Below are positions 171 through 64,000 of a stretch of DNA of 64,000 nt, piece by piece; position 1 is the first letter of the stretch, and every line of letters begins with the position of its first letter. The notes beneath the pieces were generated by a model that worked only from the letters and a program-made list of their open reading frames with translations, was not told where the DNA came from and made no database searches. A program made the translations under genes and the position numbers. Source of the DNA: Candidatus Vecturithrix granuli (lineage in GTDB: Bacteria; Moduliflexota; Moduliflexia; Moduliflexales; Moduliflexaceae); contig DF820467.1 of NCBI GenBank assembly GCA_000739535.1, forward strand, positions 141,895 through 205,894, written 5' to 3'.

Positions 171-659
171 TTATAACGCTTTCACATAAATCACCTTGCC
201 ATCGCCCGGCGCATAGAAATCCTCTAAAATCGCTTCCTCACGATATCCGCAACTGAGGTAAAATTTACGGGTAGGTTCGTATTGTTCGCGTGAGGCTGTT
301 TCGATATACACCCGTTGTCCACCACGGGCGGCAATACATTTTTCACTTTGCGCGAGTAATTGTTTGCCGATGCCTTTCCCTCGTGCGTCATGATGTACCG
401 CAATCCAATACAAATCATAGCTTGCCAGGGTACAGGCAATTGGGCCAAAACAGGTATAGCCCAACACCTTTCCGTCCTGCTCTGCAAATACAAAATAATA
501 CTCGCTTGCCAGACCTCTGGTTAAACGATCCTGCACTAATTCCACGGCTACCTCAATTTCAGCCTCAAAGAAAAATCCGGTTGAGGCTACAATGTCGCGC
601 ACATGCCCAACATCAGTCGGAAACACGTCCTCCCGAAAAATCAGGGTGTCTGTCTTCAT
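171..659 (-). CDS. GNAT-family N-acetyltransferase
   Basis: A 162-residue protein of typical GNAT length. The acetyl-CoA binding motif A is RGKGIGKQLL at about residues 93-102, preceded by the beta strand DLYWIAVHHDAR. The C-terminal RKFYLSCGYREE is the usual motif B (FYxxxGY). It should transfer an acetyl group from acetyl-CoA to an amine, but the substrate cannot be read from sequence. No good ribosome binding site precedes the ATG at 657-659. The gene is convergent with groEL and separated from the next gene upstream by a palindromic repeat, so it is probably transcribed alone. Confidence 0.85.
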   Translation of the reverse strand: MKTDTLIFREDVFPTDVGHVRDIVASTGFFFEAEIEVAVELVQDRLTRGLASEYYFVFAEQDGKVLGYTCFGPIACTLASYDLYWIAVHHDARGKGIGKQLLAQSEKCIAARGGQRVYIETASREQYEPTRKFYLSCGYREEAILEDFYAPGDGKVIYVKAL

Positions 660-52946: not shown

Positions 52947-54551
52947 TTAAAAAAATTTTTTCCCTTCCAGCACCATCTCACAGAAGCGATCCAGCATGAC
53001 ATTCTGTCCCGGAGTTAACGGTCTCAAATCATCAAGCGTGAAATGCGTGATCGGATTACCCACGCCATGATCTGCAAAATATGGCAGCGTAATGTGCCGT
53101 CGAAAAAAGTAATGATAGGCATACTTGAGAGCCAAATCTGTTGCCTGCAGCGACGGCATCATCGCTGTTCCGTGGGTCTGCTTGTGCTGTTTTTGGGCAT
53201 TCACTTCAGAGATCTGCTCAAAATACTCCTCTTTCGTCAACGGATCATACGTGAATCCTTTCCCTCTGTAAAACGCTTCGCCGGCGACAATTACCGGAAT
53301 GCCTCGCGCAGCAAACTCAAGCCCGATCTTGCTGGAATACACTATCGCTACATCAATCAGTTCGCTCAGGGTATAGGTACTCAAATCGCTTTCAGCCGGG
53401 ATGATCTTGATGTATGATGGCAGTTCAGGAAAGACACTGCGGATGACATCGGCGATTTTTTCACGGGTCTGGCTTTTGCGCCGGACTTCCGCCGGATGAC
53501 AGCGGATAAGCAATTGCATGTCCGAATGCTCAATCCCCCATCGAATGGTTTCCACCACCCAACTGGTCATATCCGAAAACACCGCGCCTCGAAACAGCAC
53601 CGCTGCATCCCAGACCAGGTTCGTAAACATGCCGATCGTTGGCTGCGACCGATCGAGGTTGAGTTGTTGAATGACCTCCTGATGATTCACTTGAGGATTC
53701 GGTGAATAGGAAATCCAATCTAAACCGCCATTGACGCGAGAGCGTAAATACTGTGTGATTTCCTCGTGCTGTTCGTCGGCGAATGGCTGGTCGCGCCAGG
53801 TCGCCGTTGGTTCGACCAGGAGATCATGATGATAGGTTCTGCCCTGCGATACGAGCAGAGAATTTTTGCGATAACCGTAGCCATAGACCGTCACTTGCAC
53901 TCCATTCTGCCGCGCATAGTCGGCTAATACGCCCCAGGTAACATACAGACCGTGTGAAATTAACAGCGCGTCCGGTTGAAGACGAGCAATCAGCTTGCGA
54001 CTCATATCAACCATCATGATCGCTGTGACAAGGAATTGTTGAAATTTCTGCCAATGATGCTCCTGATTGAGTCGTCCTCGTAAAAAGTGCCGTAAGGTTG
54101 AACTATAGGCGATCTGCCCGACCCGAACGCCCAGATATTCCATTTCCAGCCAGGTTTCTCTGGGACGGGAACTCAACAGCGCATAGATCTCAATCTCGCG
54201 AATTTTGTCAAGAAATTCGCTCACACGACATAACGGCAAGTCCGTTGCCATAAACAACGAGTGCGCATGATGCCAGCAAGCGGCGCAGGTTTCGGCCGTA
54301 TCCGTATCAATGTTGCGATGATCGCAGACCGGCATCACCTGATCACACAGCAAGACATCAACCCGCGCGCCGTGTAAGCGCAATGCATTGGACAGAATCA
54401 GGTCTATCGCGCTGCCGAGGTAATGTTGGCGCATCGCGCCGACCAATATGCGCGGTCGCGCCGATTCCCTCGGGTTTTTGCGCAATCCTGGTGGAGTAAG
54501 GGCGAACATATCTTCGGCTTGCCGGGTCAGTTCTTCAGGAAGGTTCGTCAT
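52947..54551 (-). CDS. Capsule-polysaccharide synthesis-like protein (putative glycosyltransferase)
   Basis: A 534-residue soluble protein. Residues 280-480 look like a GT-B type nucleotide-binding domain: LIRCHPAEVRRKSQ, TYTLSELIDVAIVYSSKIGLEFAARGIPVIVAG and FYRGKGFTYDP. This pattern occurs in KpsC/KpsS-like and CDP-glycerol transferases. It probably adds a sugar or polyol phosphate to a surface glycan, using the activated nonulosonate made by neighbouring genes. The donor is not determined. It overlaps neuA by 4 bases and is followed by pgpA. Its CAACW cysteine-rich section near 90 has no assigned role. Confidence 0.65.
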   Translation of the reverse strand: MTNLPEELTRQAEDMFALTPPGLRKNPRESARPRILVGAMRQHYLGSAIDLILSNALRLHGARVDVLLCDQVMPVCDHRNIDTDTAETCAACWHHAHSLFMATDLPLCRVSEFLDKIREIEIYALLSSRPRETWLEMEYLGVRVGQIAYSSTLRHFLRGRLNQEHHWQKFQQFLVTAIMMVDMSRKLIARLQPDALLISHGLYVTWGVLADYARQNGVQVTVYGYGYRKNSLLVSQGRTYHHDLLVEPTATWRDQPFADEQHEEITQYLRSRVNGGLDWISYSPNPQVNHQEVIQQLNLDRSQPTIGMFTNLVWDAAVLFRGAVFSDMTSWVVETIRWGIEHSDMQLLIRCHPAEVRRKSQTREKIADVIRSVFPELPSYIKIIPAESDLSTYTLSELIDVAIVYSSKIGLEFAARGIPVIVAGEAFYRGKGFTYDPLTKEEYFEQISEVNAQKQHKQTHGTAMMPSLQATDLALKYAYHYFFRRHITLPYFADHGVGNPITHFTLDDLRPLTPGQNVMLDRFCEMVLEGKKFF

Positions 54552-55258
54552 AGTCTTTTCGCTTGCGTGAGAGAACGTTCTGCGGCCTGGAGATCCTCCA
54601 GGGTGTCAATATTGACCGAGACAGCCGGTGGCATGATATAAGCTAAGGGTCTTGAACCATAGAGCGTGTGTTGTTCCTGGATAAGCTGTCGCCGGGCAAC
54701 GTACACCGCCCCATTTCTGTAATACGCCGCCGGCAAAAGTTGGCGACGGGGATAACGCTGCGGTCCGCCGCGATCATCAAAGGGCTGCATGAGATGCGCC
54801 TCATTCAATGCAAACGCCCAGTAGGGGTGATAATGCGCCGGAATCGTCGTCACGCTCACAACGGCCTCTGCGTCTTGCTCTACAAGCAATCTGACAGCTT
54901 CATCAATATGTAATCCCTGGCGTAACGGCGCGGTCGGTTGCAACAGTACAACTACATCAGGAACAAAGTTATGCGCCAGTGCATGCAAGGCATGTTGAAT
55001 CACGGCCAGACTCGGCGTCTCATCTTGCGCCAGTTCCGGCGGTCGCATAAATGGGACATCTATGCCCTGCTGCATAGCATATTCAGCGATTTCCTGATCC
55101 TCAGTTGAGAGAATTGTGCGTGTTAACATTGTACTGGTGCGGACAGCCTGAAAAGTGTACCAGAGCAGCGGCTGTCCTGCTAAGAGATATAGATTCTTAC
55201 GCGGAATCCCTTTGGAGCCTCCGCGCGCCGGAATAATGCCTAAAATATTCATCATCAT
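54548..55258 (-). CDS. neuA: CMP-nonulosonate cytidylyltransferase (NeuA-type)
   Basis: A 236-residue protein. The nucleotide-binding motif IPARGGSKGIPRKN is at the N terminus. LLQPTAPLR and YYRNGAVYVARR are typical of CMP-sialic acid synthetases. It activates a nine-carbon acid with CTP. Sialic, legionaminic or pseudaminic acid cannot be told apart by eye. Three consecutive ATG codons begin the frame right after the neuC stop TAA, so the start could be any of them. The gene overlaps the downstream gene by 4 bases (ATGA). Confidence 0.85.
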   Translation of the reverse strand: MMMNILGIIPARGGSKGIPRKNLYLLAGQPLLWYTFQAVRTSTMLTRTILSTEDQEIAEYAMQQGIDVPFMRPPELAQDETPSLAVIQHALHALAHNFVPDVVVLLQPTAPLRQGLHIDEAVRLLVEQDAEAVVSVTTIPAHYHPYWAFALNEAHLMQPFDDRGGPQRYPRRQLLPAAYYRNGAVYVARRQLIQEQHTLYGSRPLAYIMPPAVSVNIDTLEDLQAAERSLTQAKRL

Positions 55259-56425
55259 TTATAAGGACAGCGTTTTCTGCAAGTTTATTTTGGCGGTCGC
55301 TAATATATCAACAATACGCTGACTGGCATGACCATCGCCATACATAAGATCACGTTCATAACGGCCATGCGCTAATTGCTTACGCACTGCTGCCACGATC
55401 TCATCACAGTCATACTCCACATCAATCACATTTGGGCTTCGTTCTCGTCCGGCCTGACGATTGCCGACGCAAACCACTGGCGTGCCTAAAAAGGATCCCT
55501 CCCTCAGCGCGCTGCTGGAATTTCCGATAAAACAGGCGGATCCAGAAAGAATGCGGATATAGTCTTCAGGGGCGAAATTGGTAAAGAGATACAAAAATTC
55601 TGGACGATAGAATTGACAAAAGGCTTCAATCTGCTGCGCCATCGCGCGCCCTCCAGCGTCAACATTCGGTTTTAACAGAATCGTGGGCATCTGTAACTCA
55701 AGCAAAGCGTGCAACGTACACTTAATTTGGCTTGCCGCCGCTTGCTGTTCGGTCGTGACTGGGTGTTGGGCCACTAATAAATAGGGTTGAGTGAGATTAA
55801 AAACACGTTGGCATTGTCCATGACCTGTTCCGTTGAGTGGGAGCGTGGTTAAGGGAATGTGTAACGCCTTATGCGCCAGATCAAGCGACGGACAACCGAC
55901 ATGATATACGGTTTCCGGAGGTTCCCCCATTTTTATCAATCGTTCCGCGCTCAATTGGGTGGCCGGAAAATGGAGATGTGCCAGGCGGGTAATGGCATGA
56001 CGCACGCTTTCATCGATCGAACCCGACACCTCGCCGCCCTGTAAGTGCGCGACCGGGATGTTCATATACGCTGCCGCAACTGCTGCTGACAGGGCGTCGT
56101 AACGATCGGCGATCACAAAGACCATATCAGGCTGGAGGTTTTCAAACACTGTCGCCAGTTCAATAATCCCCAATCCCGCGCTGATTGCCATTGTGGCCGG
56201 GGTCTGCCCTTCTACCACAAAATTGACGCGCGCATGGATCGGAAAACCATCCTCTTGCACAATATTCACCGCCTCGCCAAAACACGGCAATAACATTGAC
56301 GACCCGACCACCAACTGTAATTCTAAACCAGGGTGTTCTTGAATGGCATGTAAGACTGATTTTACTCGTCCATAATTCGCCCGGTTAATCACGATCACAC
56401 AGATTTTTCGCGTTTCCATGCTCAC
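55259..56425 (-). CDS. neuC: UDP-N-acetylglucosamine 2-epimerase (hydrolysing, NeuC-type)
   Basis: A 388-residue GT-B-fold enzyme. INRANYGRVKSVL, the catalytic-region DRYDALSAAVAA, HLQGGEVSGSIDESVRHAITRL and FIGNSSSALREGSFLGTPVVCVGNRQAGRE are NeuC/hydrolysing epimerase motifs. It converts UDP-GlcNAc to ManNAc (or the related 6-deoxy-diacetamido sugar) for the NeuB step. In the same operon as neuB (13-base gap) and neuA. The TAA stop abuts the neuA ATG. Confidence 0.88.
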   Translation of the reverse strand: MSMETRKICVIVINRANYGRVKSVLHAIQEHPGLELQLVVGSSMLLPCFGEAVNIVQEDGFPIHARVNFVVEGQTPATMAISAGLGIIELATVFENLQPDMVFVIADRYDALSAAVAAAYMNIPVAHLQGGEVSGSIDESVRHAITRLAHLHFPATQLSAERLIKMGEPPETVYHVGCPSLDLAHKALHIPLTTLPLNGTGHGQCQRVFNLTQPYLLVAQHPVTTEQQAAASQIKCTLHALLELQMPTILLKPNVDAGGRAMAQQIEAFCQFYRPEFLYLFTNFAPEDYIRILSGSACFIGNSSSALREGSFLGTPVVCVGNRQAGRERSPNVIDVEYDCDEIVAAVRKQLAHGRYERDLMYGDGHASQRIVDILATAKINLQKTLSL

Positions 56426-56438
56426 GTCCGTTTGCCTT

Positions 56439-57239
56439 TCATCTATTATCGCCCCACTTTCCGATGTAAATTCCCCGCAATTCGATTTCTTTCGCGCTCA
56501 AACCGGGGCACGGCTCGCCCATCATCTGTTCAACTTGCCGCGCATACTGAGCTAATTCGCGGATTTCATCCGGTTCAGCCGAGATCGCTTGATCTTTCCC
56601 GGGTAATTCCCGACTCAGTGTAAAATGTTTTTCCAGATACGTCGCTCCTCTGGCAATGGACAGTTTTCCGGCCGCTGTTCCCAGAGTATGATCGCTGAAT
56701 CCGACAGAAGGGGTAAATTGCCGCAACCAATCCATACGCGCCAGATTCACCTGTTCCAGCGGAGTCGGATAGAGCGAGATGCAGTATAAAAAGGTATATG
56801 ACGTCTGTCCCAATAATTCCGCGGTCTGCTGAATTTCTTGATCATACGACATCCCAGTTGAAATAATCAGATGCTCAAAGCGTTCACGCAATTTCCGAAT
56901 CATGGCGTGACTCCCCAGGTCAGGACTGGCAATTTTGATCGTGTTCAGACCTAGTCCGGCTAAAAACTCCACGCGCCCGATGTCAAAACAGGTGGTTAAA
57001 AATTTGACATGATTAGCTTCACACGCCCGGATCAAACGATGATGCGCTTCATCGGACAACTCGGCTTTAGCGTGACGCTCAAAATTCGGGTCCCCCGGTT
57101 TCAGATTTTTGGCTTGCCAGGATTGAAATTTAACCCAATCGGCTCCGGCCTGCGCCGCCGCTTCGATCATTTTGACAGCGAGATTAACGTCGTCGCCGTG
57201 ATTGGCTCCAACTTCTGCAATAATTTGTGTTCGCGCCAT
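56439..57239 (-). CDS. neuB: N-acetylneuraminate synthase-like protein without the SAF domain
   Basis: A 266-residue NeuB-type aldolase. AEVGANHGDDVNLAVKMIE, WVKFQSWQAKNL, ISTGMSYDQEI, LYCISLYPTP, GFSDHTLG and LEKHFTLSRELPGKDQ are the expected catalytic segments. It condenses PEP with a hexosamine. Typical NeuB, LegI and PseI proteins are about 340-350 residues and end in an antifreeze-like SAF domain that caps the partner's active site. This one stops right after the barrel (IYIGKWGDNR). No remnant of SAF follows in the next gene, neuC. The start ATG has a poor ribosome binding site, just after a family A repeat. Confidence 0.85.
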   Translation of the reverse strand: MARTQIIAEVGANHGDDVNLAVKMIEAAAQAGADWVKFQSWQAKNLKPGDPNFERHAKAELSDEAHHRLIRACEANHVKFLTTCFDIGRVEFLAGLGLNTIKIASPDLGSHAMIRKLRERFEHLIISTGMSYDQEIQQTAELLGQTSYTFLYCISLYPTPLEQVNLARMDWLRQFTPSVGFSDHTLGTAAGKLSIARGATYLEKHFTLSRELPGKDQAISAEPDEIRELAQYARQVEQMMGEPCPGLSAKEIELRGIYIGKWGDNR

Positions 57240-59175: not shown

Positions 59176-59276
59176 CTGAAAATACCCGTACCGATGAACA
59201 GCCGTGTTTGTCGAAATCCTCTGCGGACAAGCCTGTCTGCCCCAGGCATGGCTGTCCGCAGGTACGATCTCCTCTT

Positions 59277-59843
59277 TTACCCGATCAGGGCGTTTGCTCC
59301 CGGAATCTTGTTCACGAAGGTACCTAAATCCATAATTTCATTCATATTCACTAATTTTGCGCCCATAGGGCTGGTGTTGTCAATTTTGCAAATCACGGCT
59401 ACGGGGCCTTTTTCGCTGGCATTCAACGGCACTTCCACTTCTTCGCCGCGGTCATTCATCACGATGACCGAGCCATCATAGGAGCCGAACGCTGAGGCGA
59501 TTTTTTGCGAAGCATCAGTATAATTCAGAGCCACGATATAGAGATCGGCTAGATCATCTAACTTCGTAATCCGCAAGATCTCCTGATTATCGCCGCCTTT
59601 TGCGCCAACCCCGGCGTCGCCGCTCAATTCGATAAAGGGGAAACTATTCAAACTCCCCATTGAGCCGCCTGGATACCCGTCGGAAAATACCCCGCCGGGC
59701 TGACCGGTCTTGGTTTTGTAAAAGGCCATCAAATCCAGATCGACATCGGCTGTCCAGCGTAAGGTGATCATCAGTTGTTTGACGGATACATACGCTTCTT
59801 CCCCTTTTTTATTCAATGTTACTTTGCGTTTAAGTTCTGCCAT
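59277..59843 (-). CDS. TerD-like stress protein
   Basis: A 188-residue protein with TerD-domain features: LMITLRWTADVDLDLMAFY (the typical WxxxxDLDLxxxx strand), a glycine-rich part around GVFSDGYPGGSMGS, GDNQEILRITKL and a later LYIVALNYTDA. TerD domains bind calcium and occur in tellurite and general stress systems. Here it ends an operon with two Hsp70s and a GrpE-like protein, so a chaperone-linked role is likely. No membrane segment is seen. A strong GAGGAGG lies 65 bases upstream with a palindrome between it and the ATG at 59841-59843. Confidence 0.75.
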   Translation of the reverse strand: MAELKRKVTLNKKGEEAYVSVKQLMITLRWTADVDLDLMAFYKTKTGQPGGVFSDGYPGGSMGSLNSFPFIELSGDAGVGAKGGDNQEILRITKLDDLADLYIVALNYTDASQKIASAFGSYDGSVIVMNDRGEEVEVPLNASEKGPVAVICKIDNTSPMGAKLVNMNEIMDLGTFVNKIPGANALIG

Positions 59844-59852
59844 AACGGTTAC

Positions 59853-59906
59853 GAGGTTCGCTCAACAATGCCTCTGAACATACAGAGACAACGTTGAGCG
59901 AACCTC
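59853..59906. repeat. Palindrome between a ribosome binding site and the TerD-like start
   Basis: Arms GAGGTTCGCTCAAC and GTTGAGCGAACCTC, 14 bases each, perfect. On the minus-strand messenger the order is GAGGAGGAAA, this hairpin, then GTAACCGTT and ATG. If folded, the hairpin would bring the GAGGAGG to about 12 bases from the ATG. Confidence 0.85.
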
Positions 59907-59942
59907 TTTCCTCCTCTGAAAATTATCGAACAACTCAGACAT

Positions 59943-59992
59943 GTCCGACAACGTCCAACAAGTCCTGTTAGTAAAAACTTCTGTCCCCCTAA
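59943..59992. repeat. Repeat family J (copy 2)
   Basis: Mirror copy of the repeat at 22554-22640: on the minus strand GGGGACAGAAGTTTTTACTA, then ACAGGACTTGTTGGACGTTG and TCGGACATG. It lies between the second Hsp70 gene and the TerD-like gene. Confidence 0.65.
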
Positions 59993-60007
59993 GTACTAGT
60001 TATCCAG

Positions 60008-61519
60008 TTATGTATAATTCAGAATCGCAGATTTCTGTTGGCCTTCGGCCACCACCGTGACCGAAAGCATTTGTTCCTCATCTATTTTAAACGTGACTTC
60101 TACATCCAACTTCCCGGCTGGCCGGGGAGGGAGATCGGTAATGGAAATGGTGCCGATGTGAGAATGCGTATCTCTTCTAATAACCGGGCCAGCGCCTTGA
60201 TAAATGTCAATATCGAGAAAGGGTACATTATCCTGATATGTGGTAAACACTTGTTTGACTTTACAGGGAGTGCGATGATTGGCCGGGATCAGTTCTTTGA
60301 AATTGCGTCCCTCTCTTTTGACGGTTTTAATGCCAAGCGCATGACAGGTACGGGTATAGATGACGATGTCTTTGTCAAAAAAGCCGCGATTATCCAAATA
60401 TGCTGCGTACATGGCTGCACCTTCGGCAATGCTGGTTGAAGGATTGGCGTTACTCCAGACTTTGGATTCACCAATGACATCATCTAACAACGCTTTCATA
60501 CACGGAATCGCGCTTGAGCCGCCGACGCGAATGATGCGATCGACCTGAGAAGGCTTAATCCCGGATTTCTTCCAGAGATTTTGAATGATCTCTTTAATTT
60601 TTCTGACATGTAGTTGGATTGACGTTTCAAACTCTTCACGCGTCATTTCGCAATCGATATTTTTATCCGGGGGGATGATAAACGGCACGGAGACCCAGCA
60701 TTCGGTTGTGCTGCTGAGAGTTTTTTTAGCGTCAATCGTGGCTTCCATCAATTTCTGGCGCGACTGATTGAACTGAATCGGCGTCAGGCCATCTAACGAA
60801 AGCTGATTTTTTTTCAAAATCAGATCGGCAAAACAGGCATCAAAGTCCATGCCGCCGAGCCGGTCGTCGCCGCCTGTGCCCAGCACTTCGAAATTCAAAC
60901 TCTTTTTGGTCTGTTCCAGACGAAAGAGAGTTAGATCAAAGGTACCACCACCGAGATCGAACACCAGAATATTTTCGCTGAATTCTTTTTCAGGGTATTC
61001 TTCACTCAGTTGATAGGCATAACACAAGGAAGCGGCGATCGGTTCCTGAATAATGCCGATACAGTTGATATTCGCCCTCTCAGCCGCCGTGCGCGTATTC
61101 TCGATCTGGTGCGCTTTAAAGTAAAAGGGCACGGTCACCACACTTCCGCGGCTGCTAAAGACCCCTTTGGGAAATTTTGATTTGGCGTCTTCATAAATTT
61201 TTTCCAGAATAATCGCCGAAATGTCAACAGGATTAAATTCTTTGCCGCCAAGCAGAACTTTTTGATTGGCGTCGTCCATCAGACGTTTGACGCCAACGAT
61301 CATATTTTCAGGCGTGATCAAACCCCTGCGATATGCGATTTGGCCGACAATATATTCATCTTTTTCAGGATTGTAATAGACGACCGATTGGGTGGTGTCC
61401 TGCCCGGTTTTATTTTGAATGATACGCGGCCCTCTACCGTCAATCCAACGGGCTAAGGCGCTGAACGTGGTTCCCAAATCGAAGCCTAACACCGGATTTT
61501 TTTCGCTATCACCAGACAT
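60008..61519 (-). CDS. Hsp70-family protein without the C-terminal lid
   Basis: A 503-residue protein. The ATPase domain has GFDLGTTFSALARW, VFDLGGGTFDLTLF and RIIRVGGSSAIPCM, with an extra N-terminal variation (RWIDGRGPRIIQ). A short substrate-binding beta domain (NVPFLDIDIYQGAG, ISITDLPPRPAG, VEVTFKIDEEQML) ends at NYT. The alpha-helical lid of DnaK (about 130 residues after this point) is missing, and several stops follow. It probably binds client peptides with less gating than DnaK. It lies after the GrpE-like gene, with AGGAGGAGAGGAC before the ATG. Confidence 0.88.
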   Translation of the reverse strand: MSGDSEKNPVLGFDLGTTFSALARWIDGRGPRIIQNKTGQDTTQSVVYYNPEKDEYIVGQIAYRRGLITPENMIVGVKRLMDDANQKVLLGGKEFNPVDISAIILEKIYEDAKSKFPKGVFSSRGSVVTVPFYFKAHQIENTRTAAERANINCIGIIQEPIAASLCYAYQLSEEYPEKEFSENILVFDLGGGTFDLTLFRLEQTKKSLNFEVLGTGGDDRLGGMDFDACFADLILKKNQLSLDGLTPIQFNQSRQKLMEATIDAKKTLSSTTECWVSVPFIIPPDKNIDCEMTREEFETSIQLHVRKIKEIIQNLWKKSGIKPSQVDRIIRVGGSSAIPCMKALLDDVIGESKVWSNANPSTSIAEGAAMYAAYLDNRGFFDKDIVIYTRTCHALGIKTVKREGRNFKELIPANHRTPCKVKQVFTTYQDNVPFLDIDIYQGAGPVIRRDTHSHIGTISITDLPPRPAGKLDVEVTFKIDEEQMLSVTVVAEGQQKSAILNYT

Positions 61520-61538
61520 GTCCTCTCCTCCTGTGAAA

Positions 61539-61603
61539 ATGTAGCGCGAAACTCCGGTTTCGCGGCTGTCAACGATGCGCGAAACCGGAGTTTCGCGCTA
61601 CAT
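61539..61603. repeat. Palindrome overlapping the GrpE-like stop codon
   Basis: Inverted repeat with 26-base arms. Left ATGTAGCGCGAAACTCCGG, right CCGGAGTTTCGCGCTACAT. The right arm supplies the last Met codon and TAG stop of the GrpE-like gene. It occupies the gap between that gene and the downstream Hsp70 gene. Confidence 0.85.
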
Positions 61604-62578
61604 CTCCTGTGTTTCGTTCTCATTCTTCACGACCACAACCTGGGCGGCGCGAAGCACCAGACGTTCACCGCAATGTGTGACATATTCGTAGCCTTTTCTG
61701 GTTATTTCTTTAATCCGGTCATTTTCCATGCTGGGGTCAGGCTCAACGGCGCATGGCTCATGACGTTCAAAATCAATCACTGCGCCCGGGACCACATCCA
61801 TCTCATGCACCTCAAGCTGCTCAAAAACGTGTTCGAGCTCCTCTCCAATTTTGTTATAAGCCGCACACCAGGCATCCAGGTCTGCGGCATTTTCCGCATA
61901 ACGATGCCGGAACTCTTCAATGCGAGGTGGCAAGTGTTTCTGGCCGTCATAGATGCCGTCAAGAATGGGCAGCACTTGTTTTTCGAGGAAAGATAATATC
62001 TGGTTTTTGCGATTTTTCACCAGATCATTTGACAGGGAAACGACTTTGTAATTGTCTTTTCCGATGCTGTTCAGTTCTTGTTGAATTTTTTTGAGCGCGA
62101 GTTCTTTTTCCGTTATCTCTTCTATCAATGCCTGCCATTCCTGCTCTGTATGCATCTGCAAGTCGCCCGACAATTCGAGATCACTGGCGAGTTTTTTTAA
62201 GCGATCCCCTGGCGTGACCAGGCGTTCCAACATTCTGCCGATAATTTCCAGTCCTTCCTGATGGTTTTTGATCTCCTGTTGCAACTCGTCAGGGAAGGCG
62301 GCGACAATCTCCCGGTTTTCCACAATGATCTGTTTAGCTGCGTCTGCGGCGCGTTCGATTTCGGACAATAAGGTTTTGCCGTGTTTTTCCCAGTAACGGG
62401 CTTCTTCAAGGTTGGCGTCATATTGCTGCCGATCGTCTTCAAACTGTGCTTCCTCGCTTTTCCTGGCGCTGGCAATCAATTCGTCAAGATCGAATTCCGG
62501 TTGGAGGTCCGCTGTCGGTTGCTCCTCTAAAACCTTCGGTTCCTCCTGAACAGATACCTGTGCTTCTGATGTTGTCAT
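61598..62578 (-). CDS. GrpE-like nucleotide-exchange factor with long coiled coil
   Basis: A 326-residue protein. Residues 1-30 are acidic and low in structure. Residues 40-250 are mostly helical and charged, a probable coiled coil (EARYWEKHGKTLLSEIERAA, IEEITEKELALKKIQ). Residues about 250-320 look like the GrpE head: HEMDVVPGAVIDFERHEPCA, EITRKGYEYV, and GERLVLRAAQVVVVKN. GrpE releases ADP from DnaK. This protein is about 130 residues longer than E. coli GrpE (197). Only the head gives clear similarity. It starts 26 bases after the upstream Hsp70, with CAGGAGGAACGTGCG before the ATG. Confidence 0.75.
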   Translation of the reverse strand: MTTSEAQVSVQEEPKVLEEQPTADLQPEFDLDELIASARKSEEAQFEDDRQQYDANLEEARYWEKHGKTLLSEIERAADAAKQIIVENREIVAAFPDELQQEIKNHQEGLEIIGRMLERLVTPGDRLKKLASDLELSGDLQMHTEQEWQALIEEITEKELALKKIQQELNSIGKDNYKVVSLSNDLVKNRKNQILSFLEKQVLPILDGIYDGQKHLPPRIEEFRHRYAENAADLDAWCAAYNKIGEELEHVFEQLEVHEMDVVPGAVIDFERHEPCAVEPDPSMENDRIKEITRKGYEYVTHCGERLVLRAAQVVVVKNENETQEM

Positions 62579-62604
62579 CGCACGTTCCTCCTGAGTTTAT
62601 GCGG

Positions 62605-64000
62605 TTATGATTCTTTAATTTCCAATTCCTCCGAAGAGCTTGAACTGCTTGCTCTGACTTTGAGTAAATTTTGCTGATCGATCTCGAACCTGACTGTAAT
62701 TCGTTCCTGGCCGCGTGGTTTTGGCGGAATGCCGGTCAGGAAAAATTCTCCGATACATTTCACGCCTTCTGAGGAGACATATTCGACTTCATCAAGGGTT
62801 TGATACACTCGGATCGCCAGTTCGGTCATATTATCCCTGGGCGTGCTGTATTCCTTTGTGGCAGCCGCCGGCTCATCAGCCGGAATATCCGTGCCTTTGC
62901 GGATAAGACAGCTAAATTTGCCGCCGACCACTTCAATGCCCAGGTTATGCGTCACTTTATCGTGCAATTGGATTTTGAACGCCGGGGTATCATCAGCTTC
63001 TTTCGGCACGAAATCGGCGTCTTGCGGCAGATTCATGGTTGCTCCCAGAATTGCGGCCCCGCGCGCAATCGCCGTATCCGGATCAATATCCGAATACGGT
63101 TCTCTGCCAAACATTTCCTGAAGCATTTCTTTGACCAGAGGCACTTTGGTTGAGCCGCCGACCAGTATGATGCGATCGATGTCTCTGATGGTAAATTGAG
63201 CGGCATCCAGGGCTTTTTGCACGGCTTCTCTGGTGTCCATGACCAGATCACGAATGACATCGTTAAACTGCTCGCGCGTCACTTCCATCTCAACATGATA
63301 CGGCGTGCCGCTTTCATCGTGAATAATATTGGGAATATGAATATTGGCCGTCGAAGCTTCGGTCAGCTCATGTTTGGCCTCCATCACGGCCTCTTTCAGT
63401 TTTTGCTGGGCGTTGCGGAGTTTATTTTCATTGATCCCCTGATCTTTTTTCAGATCGAGGATGTCAATGCCGGAGTGCTCGCGTAATGTGCTGGCAACAA
63501 TCGCCATCAGCCGCTCATCAAAGTCGTCGCCGCCTAATTCCGAAATGCCTTCTTTTGCCAGCACGCTGAAGGTTTTCTGATCATCCTCTGTTGAATTGAC
63601 CTGGAGAATTGAGACATCAAAAGTGCCGCCGCCGAGATCATAGACCAGAATCGTCTGGTCGCGCTCTTTTTCCAGCGCATAAGCATAGGCGGCCGCCACC
63701 GGTTCTTCTAACAGGTGGAGCACCTCCAGATTTGCCAGTTCCGCGGCTTTCCTGGTCGCTTTCTTTTTGGCGTCGTCGAAATTGGCAGGCACGCAGATCA
63801 CCGCATATTTGGGAATGCCGCCGAGTTCAAAGGCTTCATACTGCTGCACGCCCGCTGCGACTTTTAAGAGAATTTCGGCCGCAATATCCGAGGGGGTATA
63901 AACTTTTTCCGGTTTGCCATCAAAGACTTTGGTCCAGTCTTCTCCCATTTTGCGTTTGATAGAAATGATCGTATTTTCAGGATCGATGATGCTGCGCGAT
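62605..64000 (-). CDS. Hsp70-family protein without the C-terminal lid, DnaK-like (partial, 5' end outside)
   Basis: The frame runs from the window edge to 62605. Its sequence there (SIIDPENTIISIKRKMG) is the DnaK stretch normally near residue 60. It has YDLGGGTFDVSILQ, LEEPVAAAYAYALE, DRIILVGGSTKVPLV and the substrate-binding beta domain (IGEFFLTGIPPKPRGQ, VRFEIDQQNLL). It ends SSSSEELEIKES, the place where the lid of DnaK would start, and the next gene's ribosome binding site is within 20 bases. So this is also lidless, of about 510 residues. It may be the first gene of the operon. Its promoter lies outside the window. Confidence 0.88.
   Translation of the reverse strand, partial: SRSIIDPENTIISIKRKMGEDWTKVFDGKPEKVYTPSDIAAEILLKVAAGVQQYEAFELGGIPKYAVICVPANFDDAKKKATRKAAELANLEVLHLLEEPVAAAYAYALEKERDQTILVYDLGGGTFDVSILQVNSTEDDQKTFSVLAKEGISELGGDDFDERLMAIVASTLREHSGIDILDLKKDQGINENKLRNAQQKLKEAVMEAKHELTEASTANIHIPNIIHDESGTPYHVEMEVTREQFNDVIRDLVMDTREAVQKALDAAQFTIRDIDRIILVGGSTKVPLVKEMLQEMFGREPYSDIDPDTAIARGAAILGATMNLPQDADFVPKEADDTPAFKIQLHDKVTHNLGIEVVGGKFSCLIRKGTDIPADEPAAATKEYSTPRDNMTELAIRVYQTLDEVEYVSSEGVKCIGEFFLTGIPPKPRGQERITVRFEIDQQNLLKVRASSSSSSEELEIKES

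What the first reader, a model, noticed from the sequence alone, without database searches (positions are those of the whole stretch)
59277..64000. Two lidless Hsp70s, a GrpE-like coiled coil and a TerD-like protein in one operon
All four genes share one strand and short gaps. Both Hsp70s stop at the end of the substrate-binding beta domain, and the next genes or stops leave no room for a lost lid. The GrpE head is fused to a long helical region. No J-protein is seen in the window. TerD-type proteins belong to a calcium/stress protein family, so a client-holding machine under ion or redox stress is possible. The operon is unlike standard dnaK-grpE-dnaJ.
Basis: partly seen in the sequence, partly recalled or inferred. 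Interest (0 to 1): 0.8.

Follow-up and report, generated by a model that had tools for sequence, protein, structure and literature searches.

The report
Lidless three-Hsp70 operon with long GrpE
A filamentous wastewater bacterium, and a few distant filamentous or cyanobacterial-side relatives, carry a conserved set of three shortened Hsp70 chaperones plus a long GrpE partner, with no J-protein; they look like a switch coupled to a protease and sensor proteins rather than an ordinary protein-folding machine.

Summary
The four genes are real, but they are only the 3' end of a nine-gene, same-strand run cut by the window edge: TerD-TerA-like double, TerF-type vWA, TerD, cytosolic trypsin-like protease, HspA, HspB, long GrpE, HspC, TerD. 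There are three lidless Hsp70s, not two. The genome matches Candidatus Vecturithrix granuli (8,384,694 bp, 21 scaffolds). It also has a normal lidded DnaK and nine J-domain genes, none beside this operon.

Gene order is kept and no lid occurs in any complete copy. One locus repeats vWA-trypsin-HspA-HspB-GrpE-HspC. TerD is beside the Hsp70s only in Vecturithrix. ATPase residues are intact, but J-domain contacts and the VLLLD linker are lost in HspB and HspC and partly in HspA. In variants a vWA domain follows HspA, a UvrD helicase is fused to it, or S1 RNA-binding domains replace the HspC peptide-binding domain.

Best reading: a GrpE-driven, J-independent Hsp70 switch gating effectors in a stress or conflict response. 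The architecture is well supported; function is inferred. I found no published description.

The parts
62605..64000 (-). HspB, lidless Hsp70 (full gene 526 aa, C17:204499-206079; its 5' end lies beyond the window). ATPase residues intact; J-domain contacts lost; keeps the GrpE-signature loop; ends ...ELEIKES
   Evidence: PF00012 2.1e-113; orthologues 72% D. magnum, 63% G650, 61% G1138, 55% G1408; residue map
61598..62578 (-). Long GrpE-like nucleotide-exchange factor, 326 aa: new helical N-terminal region, long helices, C-terminal beta wing
   Evidence: PF01025 5.3e-13; AlphaFold helices 31-93, 97-121, 158-226, 228-254 plus strands 257-310, mean pLDDT 72.7; orthologues 32-45% in other genomes
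60008..61519 (-). HspC, the most divergent lidless Hsp70, 503 aa, ends ...SAILNYT right after the beta domain
   Evidence: PF00012 8.5e-86; orthologues 69% D. magnum, 64% G650, 55-58% in three further genomes, all 496-516 aa
59853..59906 (-). 24-bp-arm hairpin just upstream of the last TerD start codon; one such hairpin in the genome; may control or insulate that gene
   Evidence: (z-score -5.9 for the whole intergenic stretch)
59277..59843 (-). TerD-superfamily protein, 188 aa, of a subfamily that Pfam does not recognise
   Evidence: 68% identical to the second TerD of the operon; remote TerD homology

Best explanation
This is a dedicated three-Hsp70 switch, not a housekeeping folding machine. 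Shown by sequence: HspA, HspB and HspC keep the ATP-binding and hydrolysis residues, have a peptide-binding beta domain but no lid, have lost (B, C) or partly lost (A) the residues through which a J-protein triggers hydrolysis, and co-occur with their own long GrpE. Inferred: without lid and J-trigger they bind peptides weakly and exchange fast, are cycled mainly by intrinsic hydrolysis and by GrpE on HspB, and work as a hetero-assembly that holds or releases a specific partner. In Vecturithrix the likely outputs and inputs are the operon's cytosolic trypsin-like protease, the TerF-type vWA (a metal-dependent peptide-binding co-chaperone type) and the TerD proteins. In other genomes the same core is wired to a fused vWA, a UvrD helicase or S1 RNA-binding domains. 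The logic is a chaperone-set threshold that unleashes an effector under protein-damage stress or infection.
For: Nine same-strand genes with gaps of 26-164 bp. Conserved core: HspB-GrpE-HspC in G650, HspA-HspB-GrpE-HspC in G1138, two vWA-trypsin-HspA-HspA/vWA-HspB-GrpE-HspC in G1408, UvrD/HspA-GrpE-HspC/S1 in G1257 and G1196. D. magnum holds all four, dispersed over three loci, so the link is not only operon inheritance. ATPase positions D8, T11, K70, P143, E171, D194, T199, D201 are conserved in every row with sequence there. J-contact and relay positions: R167 is H/Y/S in HspB and mostly G in HspC; N170 is lost in all; T173 is V/I in B/C; D393 is T in all HspC and mostly N in HspB; D481 is lost in B/C. 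R167, D393 and D481 form the J-domain relay in DnaK (PMC7289447). The GrpE-signature loop is present in HspB and shortened in HspA and HspC. Protease triad residues intact and no signal peptide evident. Known analogues: MoxR-vWA and Hsp70/GrpE-containing conflict systems in multicellular prokaryotes (PMC7159879) and lidless Ssz1 (PMC7083937).
Against: No experiment. The effector is not constant: trypsin and a TerF-type vWA are beside the core only in Vecturithrix and G1408. No PADLOC defence model fits the operon specifically. R167, D393 and D481 are mostly kept in HspA, so J-independence may not hold for all three. The HspC structure model is poor (pLDDT 54) and complexes could not be modelled. 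The GrpE model found no GrpE among the top Foldseek PDB hits.
Confidence: 0.45

Rival explanations
1. Ter-linked client-holding machine for ion or redox stress: the Hsp70s hold damaged proteins while TerD proteins sense calcium or another ion.
For: Three TerD-type proteins and a TerF-type vWA in the same operon; canonical Ter systems are stress-linked (established knowledge).
Against: TerD is beside the Hsp70 core only in Vecturithrix. In 22 loci of the same TerD subfamily, tblastn found no Hsp70, GrpE or trypsin of this set. D. magnum has both kinds but at separate loci.
Confidence: 0.2
2. Anti-phage conflict system: invader proteins engage the Hsp70/vWA sensor and release the protease or helicase effector.
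For: Patchy distribution across phyla; cytosolic trypsin-like protease; UvrD helicase fused to HspA scoring against GajB models, and S1 domains on HspC; protein kinase downstream in G1257; similar logic in published conflict systems (PMC7159879).
Against: No PADLOC system matched in the window operon; the GajB match is generic UvrD helicase; no defence island seen in the flanks read.
Confidence: 0.2
3. Ribosome or RNA-associated machine like fungal RAC, in which a lidless Hsp70 (Ssz1) is a structural partner rather than a cycling chaperone.
For: Natural precedent of a lidless Hsp70 with a permanent partner (PMC7083937); S1 RNA-binding domains on HspC in two genomes.
Against: ATPase residues intact, whereas Ssz1 does not hydrolyse ATP; a dedicated GrpE suggests nucleotide cycling; no J-protein partner; no ribosomal neighbours.
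Confidence: 0.1
4. Decaying DnaK paralogues without function.
For: Loss of lid, linker motif and J-contacts.
Against: Three separate clades with 100% bootstrap, about 54-81% identity across phyla, intact ATPase sites and the same truncation point in all complete copies.
Confidence: 0.03

Closest known systems
DnaK-GrpE-DnaJ
   Same: Hsp70 ATPase domain plus beta domain; GrpE beta wing
   Different: Three Hsp70s, no lid, altered linker and J-contacts, no J-gene, long N-terminally extended GrpE; bits 296 and 334 against the DnaK cut-off 823
HscA and HscC
   Same: Specialised bacterial Hsp70 paralogues with sporadic distribution (PMC8215388)
   Different: HscA and HscC keep a lid and have dedicated J-proteins and are thought not to use GrpE; here the reverse
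Fungal Ssz1 (RAC)
   Same: Natural lidless Hsp70 with complete beta domain and an altered linker
   Different: Ssz1 binds but does not hydrolyse ATP and is bound to the J-protein Zuo1 (PMC7083937); here ATPase residues are intact and the partner is GrpE
GAP1-N2 GTPase conflict systems with HSP70 and GrpE (Kaur et al. 2020, PMC7159879)
   Same: Hsp70 and GrpE in a conflict-type gene cluster, a second shortened Hsp70, vWA neighbours in related systems, multicellular hosts
   Different: No GTPase, FNIII or DnaJ-fusion gene here; three lidless Hsp70s that keep the beta domain; trypsin and TerF-type vWA instead
Ter systems (TerD, TerF-vWA)
   Same: TerF-type vWA and TerD-superfamily proteins in the operon
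   Different: TerD subfamily not recognised by PF02342; Ter genes not beside the Hsp70 core elsewhere

Membership tests
Hsp70 superfamily (PF00012) | Hsp70 NBD plus SBD-beta with ATPase motifs | tested here: met
   E 3.1e-118, 2.1e-113, 8.5e-86; catalytic residues conserved
Hsp70 superfamily (PF00012) | C-terminal helical lid (SBD-alpha) | tested here: not met
   Absent in all complete orthologues; no lid in operon DNA
DnaK (TIGR02350) | Curated equivalog score of 822.55 bits | tested here: not met
   HspC 295.6 bits; HspB partial 333.8 bits. HspA not scored
DnaK/HscA J-protein-driven cycle | R167, N170, T173, D393, D481 contacts and VLLLD linker | tested here: not met
   Lost in HspB and HspC; partly kept in HspA (R167 in 5 of 7, T173 in all, D481 in 5 of 7, D393 in 4 of 7; N170 and linker lost)
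GrpE (PF01025) | Curated gathering score and beta-wing motif | tested here: met
   49.4 bits against 25.8; orthologues hit too, G650 just below cut-off
GrpE (PF01025) | Accelerates nucleotide release from an Hsp70 | not testable with these tools
   Needs biochemistry
TerD (PF02342) | Curated Pfam match | tested here: not met
   No PF02342 hit up to E=1 for the window TerD and none for the other two operon TerD proteins up to 0.1; remote homology only (hhalign 4e-10)
TerF-type vWA (PF10138) | Curated Pfam match and MIDAS DxSxS | tested here: met
   232.5 bits against 29.4; D44, S46, S48 invariant in alignment
GAP1-N2 GTPase/HSP70 conflict system | TRAFAC GTPase gene in the cluster | tested here: not met
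   No GTPase domain among the operon genes scanned
Known anti-phage systems (PADLOC) | System-specific model match | tested here: not met
   Only generic protease and Hsp70 matches
Ssz1/RAC-like lidless Hsp70 | ATP hydrolysis lost; stable J-protein partner | tested here: not met
   Catalytic residues intact; none of the nine J-domain genes lies near the operon. Hydrolysis itself not measured

The most novel reading that the evidence does not exclude
A new class of Hsp70 machine: an obligate trio of lidless, J-uncoupled Hsp70s with its own extended GrpE, shared by Modulibacteria, Desulfobacterota and probably Cyanobacteria, used as an ATP-timed threshold switch for variable effectors (protease, helicase, RNA-binding) in stress or anti-invader responses.
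Probability: 0.42. Interest if true: 0.85.

Novelty: new variant of a known kind. Interest (0 to 1): 0.7.

Why it matters
The 2021 review of bacterial Hsp70s consulted here lists three types, all with lids and J-proteins. A conserved set that lacks both but keeps ATPase sites and GrpE would be a natural experiment on what the lid and the J-trigger are for, and would show Hsp70 used as a signalling switch. It also gives a defined gene set for testing whether chaperones set thresholds for effectors in filamentous and multicellular bacteria.

Tried and rejected
TerD-based search for the neighbourhood: 22 loci, none with this Hsp70/GrpE/trypsin set, so TerD is not the marker of the system. vWA-based search: six loci in other genomes, no other operon component. 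Plasmid and phage records: only ordinary DnaK-like proteins at about 31-44% identity; the GrpE finds nothing on plasmids. Viral contigs: none. HspC in 278 relatives of Parabeggiatoa: none, without a positive control in that set. Foldseek with the GrpE model: only generic helical bundles. The HspC AlphaFold model is too poor to use. Decay and a lid lost by sequencing error were rejected. Promoter and terminator scans were no better than shuffles.
Full report
Observation. Pfam calls the two Hsp70s (PF00012) and the GrpE (PF01025, 5.3e-13) clearly. The TerD-like protein has no convincing Pfam or NCBIfam match. The window is contig C17:141895-205894 of an 8,384,694-base genome in 21 contigs. These two numbers equal those of Candidatus Vecturithrix granuli UASB270, phylum KSB3/Modulibacteria (PMC4312070, Table 1).

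The window edge cut the operon. Reading on gives nine same-strand genes: a TerD/TerA-like double protein (start C17:211127), a TerF-type vWA (231 aa, PF10138 6.9e-69), a TerD (192 aa), a trypsin-like protease (201 aa, PF13365, no signal peptide or membrane segment evident), HspA (512 aa from the likely start), HspB (526 aa), GrpE, HspC and a last TerD. Gaps are 26-164 bp. The 'TerA-like' label for the second half of the double protein is my own reading of the sequence, not a database hit. A strong 24-bp-arm hairpin, found once in the genome, lies in the largest gap, just before the last TerD; that gene may be regulated apart.

Lid. All three Hsp70s stop at the end of the beta domain, HspA with a tail of about 35 residues. 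Gaps of 95, 26 and 164 bp leave no room for a lid, and a tblastn search with DnaK lids finds none, while the positive control is strong.

The rest of the genome has a normal 637-aa DnaK, a second lidded Hsp70 beside a J-domain gene and a GrpE-like gene, and nine J-domain genes in all, none near the operon.

Relatives. A search with the GrpE found Desulfonema magnum (45%), followed there by an HspC orthologue (69%, 499 aa). D. magnum also has HspB (72%) and HspA (70%) at two other loci. A relative of D. magnum (G650) has HspB-GrpE-HspC in the same order on a short contig. An HspC-profile search among relatives of Hormoscilla found five more genomes. G1138: HspA-HspB-GrpE-HspC. G1211: GrpE-HspC on a contig end. 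G1408: vWA-like, vWA, trypsin (48%), HspA, a second HspA with a vWA domain after its beta domain, HspB, GrpE, HspC. G1257 and G1196: UvrD helicase fused to HspA, GrpE with a long coiled-coil N-terminus, and HspC whose ATPase domain is followed by S1 domains instead of the beta domain. The set is rare: 2 of 389 relatives of D. magnum including itself, 5 of 389, 0 of 278, and GrpE in none of 384 other genomes around Vecturithrix apart from one generic weak match. The three nearest relatives held, one of the same family and two of the same order, lack the GrpE, so horizontal transfer is likely. Extensive gene sharing among Desulfonema, cyanobacteria and KSB3 filaments has been reported for another Desulfonema (PMC6390638).

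Anatomy. On an alignment with E. coli DnaK, HscA and HscC, D8, T11, K70, P143, E171, D194, T199 and D201 are kept in every row with sequence there. R167 is H, H, Y, S in HspB and mostly G in HspC; N170 is lost in all; T173 is V in HspB and I in HspC; D393 is T in all HspC and mostly N in HspB; D481 is lost in both. In DnaK the R167-D393-D481 network is what the J-domain disrupts (PMC7289447). The VLLLD linker is replaced in all three, and HspB has an insertion before it. HspA keeps R167 in 5 of 7, D393 in 4 of 7 and D481 in 5 of 7. The GrpE-signature loop is present in HspB but shortened in HspA and HspC, so HspB is the likeliest target of the GrpE. Between Vecturithrix and D. magnum the HspB beta domain (81%) is more conserved than its ATPase domain (72%), which suggests a fixed partner there. 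A tree puts HspA, HspB and HspC in three 100%-supported clades outside the DnaK group; whether they share a lidless ancestor is open.

GrpE. AlphaFold from three sequences gives long helices and a C-terminal beta wing (mean pLDDT 72.7). Foldseek did not recover GrpE, and hhalign to E. coli GrpE alone is weak and limited to the beta wing, so the assignment rests on the Pfam profile, hit by all orthologues scanned, one just under cut-off, and on gene order.

TerD. The Ter proteins are a divergent subfamily: no PF02342 hit, but a PF02342-positive plasmid protein matches at 4e-10. The subfamily is found in Hormoscilla, Magnetobacterium, Thiomargarita, Parabeggiatoa and Desulfonema, among others, without this Hsp70 set beside it. 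TerD is therefore a local partner, not part of the core.

Mechanism. I infer an ATP-timed hetero-Hsp70 switch, cycled by intrinsic hydrolysis and GrpE, that holds or releases a partner and thereby gates an effector: here most likely the trypsin-like protease with the vWA as co-chaperone. A lidless DnaK binds more weakly and exchanges 10-100 times faster (cited in PMC7083937), which suits a sensor better than a folding machine. The logic resembles chaperone-thresholded conflict systems of multicellular prokaryotes (PMC7159879), but the defining GTPase or MoxR genes are absent, so I do not file it there.

Novelty. Papers searched and the bacterial Hsp70 review (PMC8215388) describe no such set; only open-access papers could be searched. 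I call it a new variant of a known kind.

Noticed in passing
L030:8644-12382, L029:6460-14595, L040:8332-11992: A TerD subfamily below Pfam detection forms clusters in Hormoscilla, Magnetobacterium, Desulfonema and others; in L030 an M48 peptidase/TerB gene follows, and similar genes follow in L029 and L040.
   Followed up: partly
L065:6005-11439: Second Hsp70 system of the same genome: TPR proteins, a short J-domain protein, a GrpE-like protein and a 583-aa lidded Hsp70 in one run.
   Followed up: no
L061:11753-14512: In D. magnum the lone HspB gene is followed by a cNMP-binding/DUF4388 protein.
   Followed up: partly
L099:4831-8061 and L100:12727-15957: UvrD helicase fused to a lidless Hsp70 (HspA type), a fusion I have not seen described.
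   Followed up: partly
L098:13781-15871: HspA paralogue with a C-terminal vWA domain after the beta domain, where the lid would be.
   Followed up: partly
L098:469-7517: Two large proteins downstream of HspC in G1408 (1063 aa without Pfam match; 1329 aa with helicase_C/AAA), possible effectors.
   Followed up: no
window 54548-57239: Likely nonulosonic (sialic-type) acid synthesis genes beside the operon, by eye from the translations (NeuA-, NeuC- and NeuB-like).
   Followed up: no
window 59221-59261: Second inverted repeat (19-nt arms, 79%) just downstream of the last TerD stop codon, a possible end of the operon.
   Followed up: no
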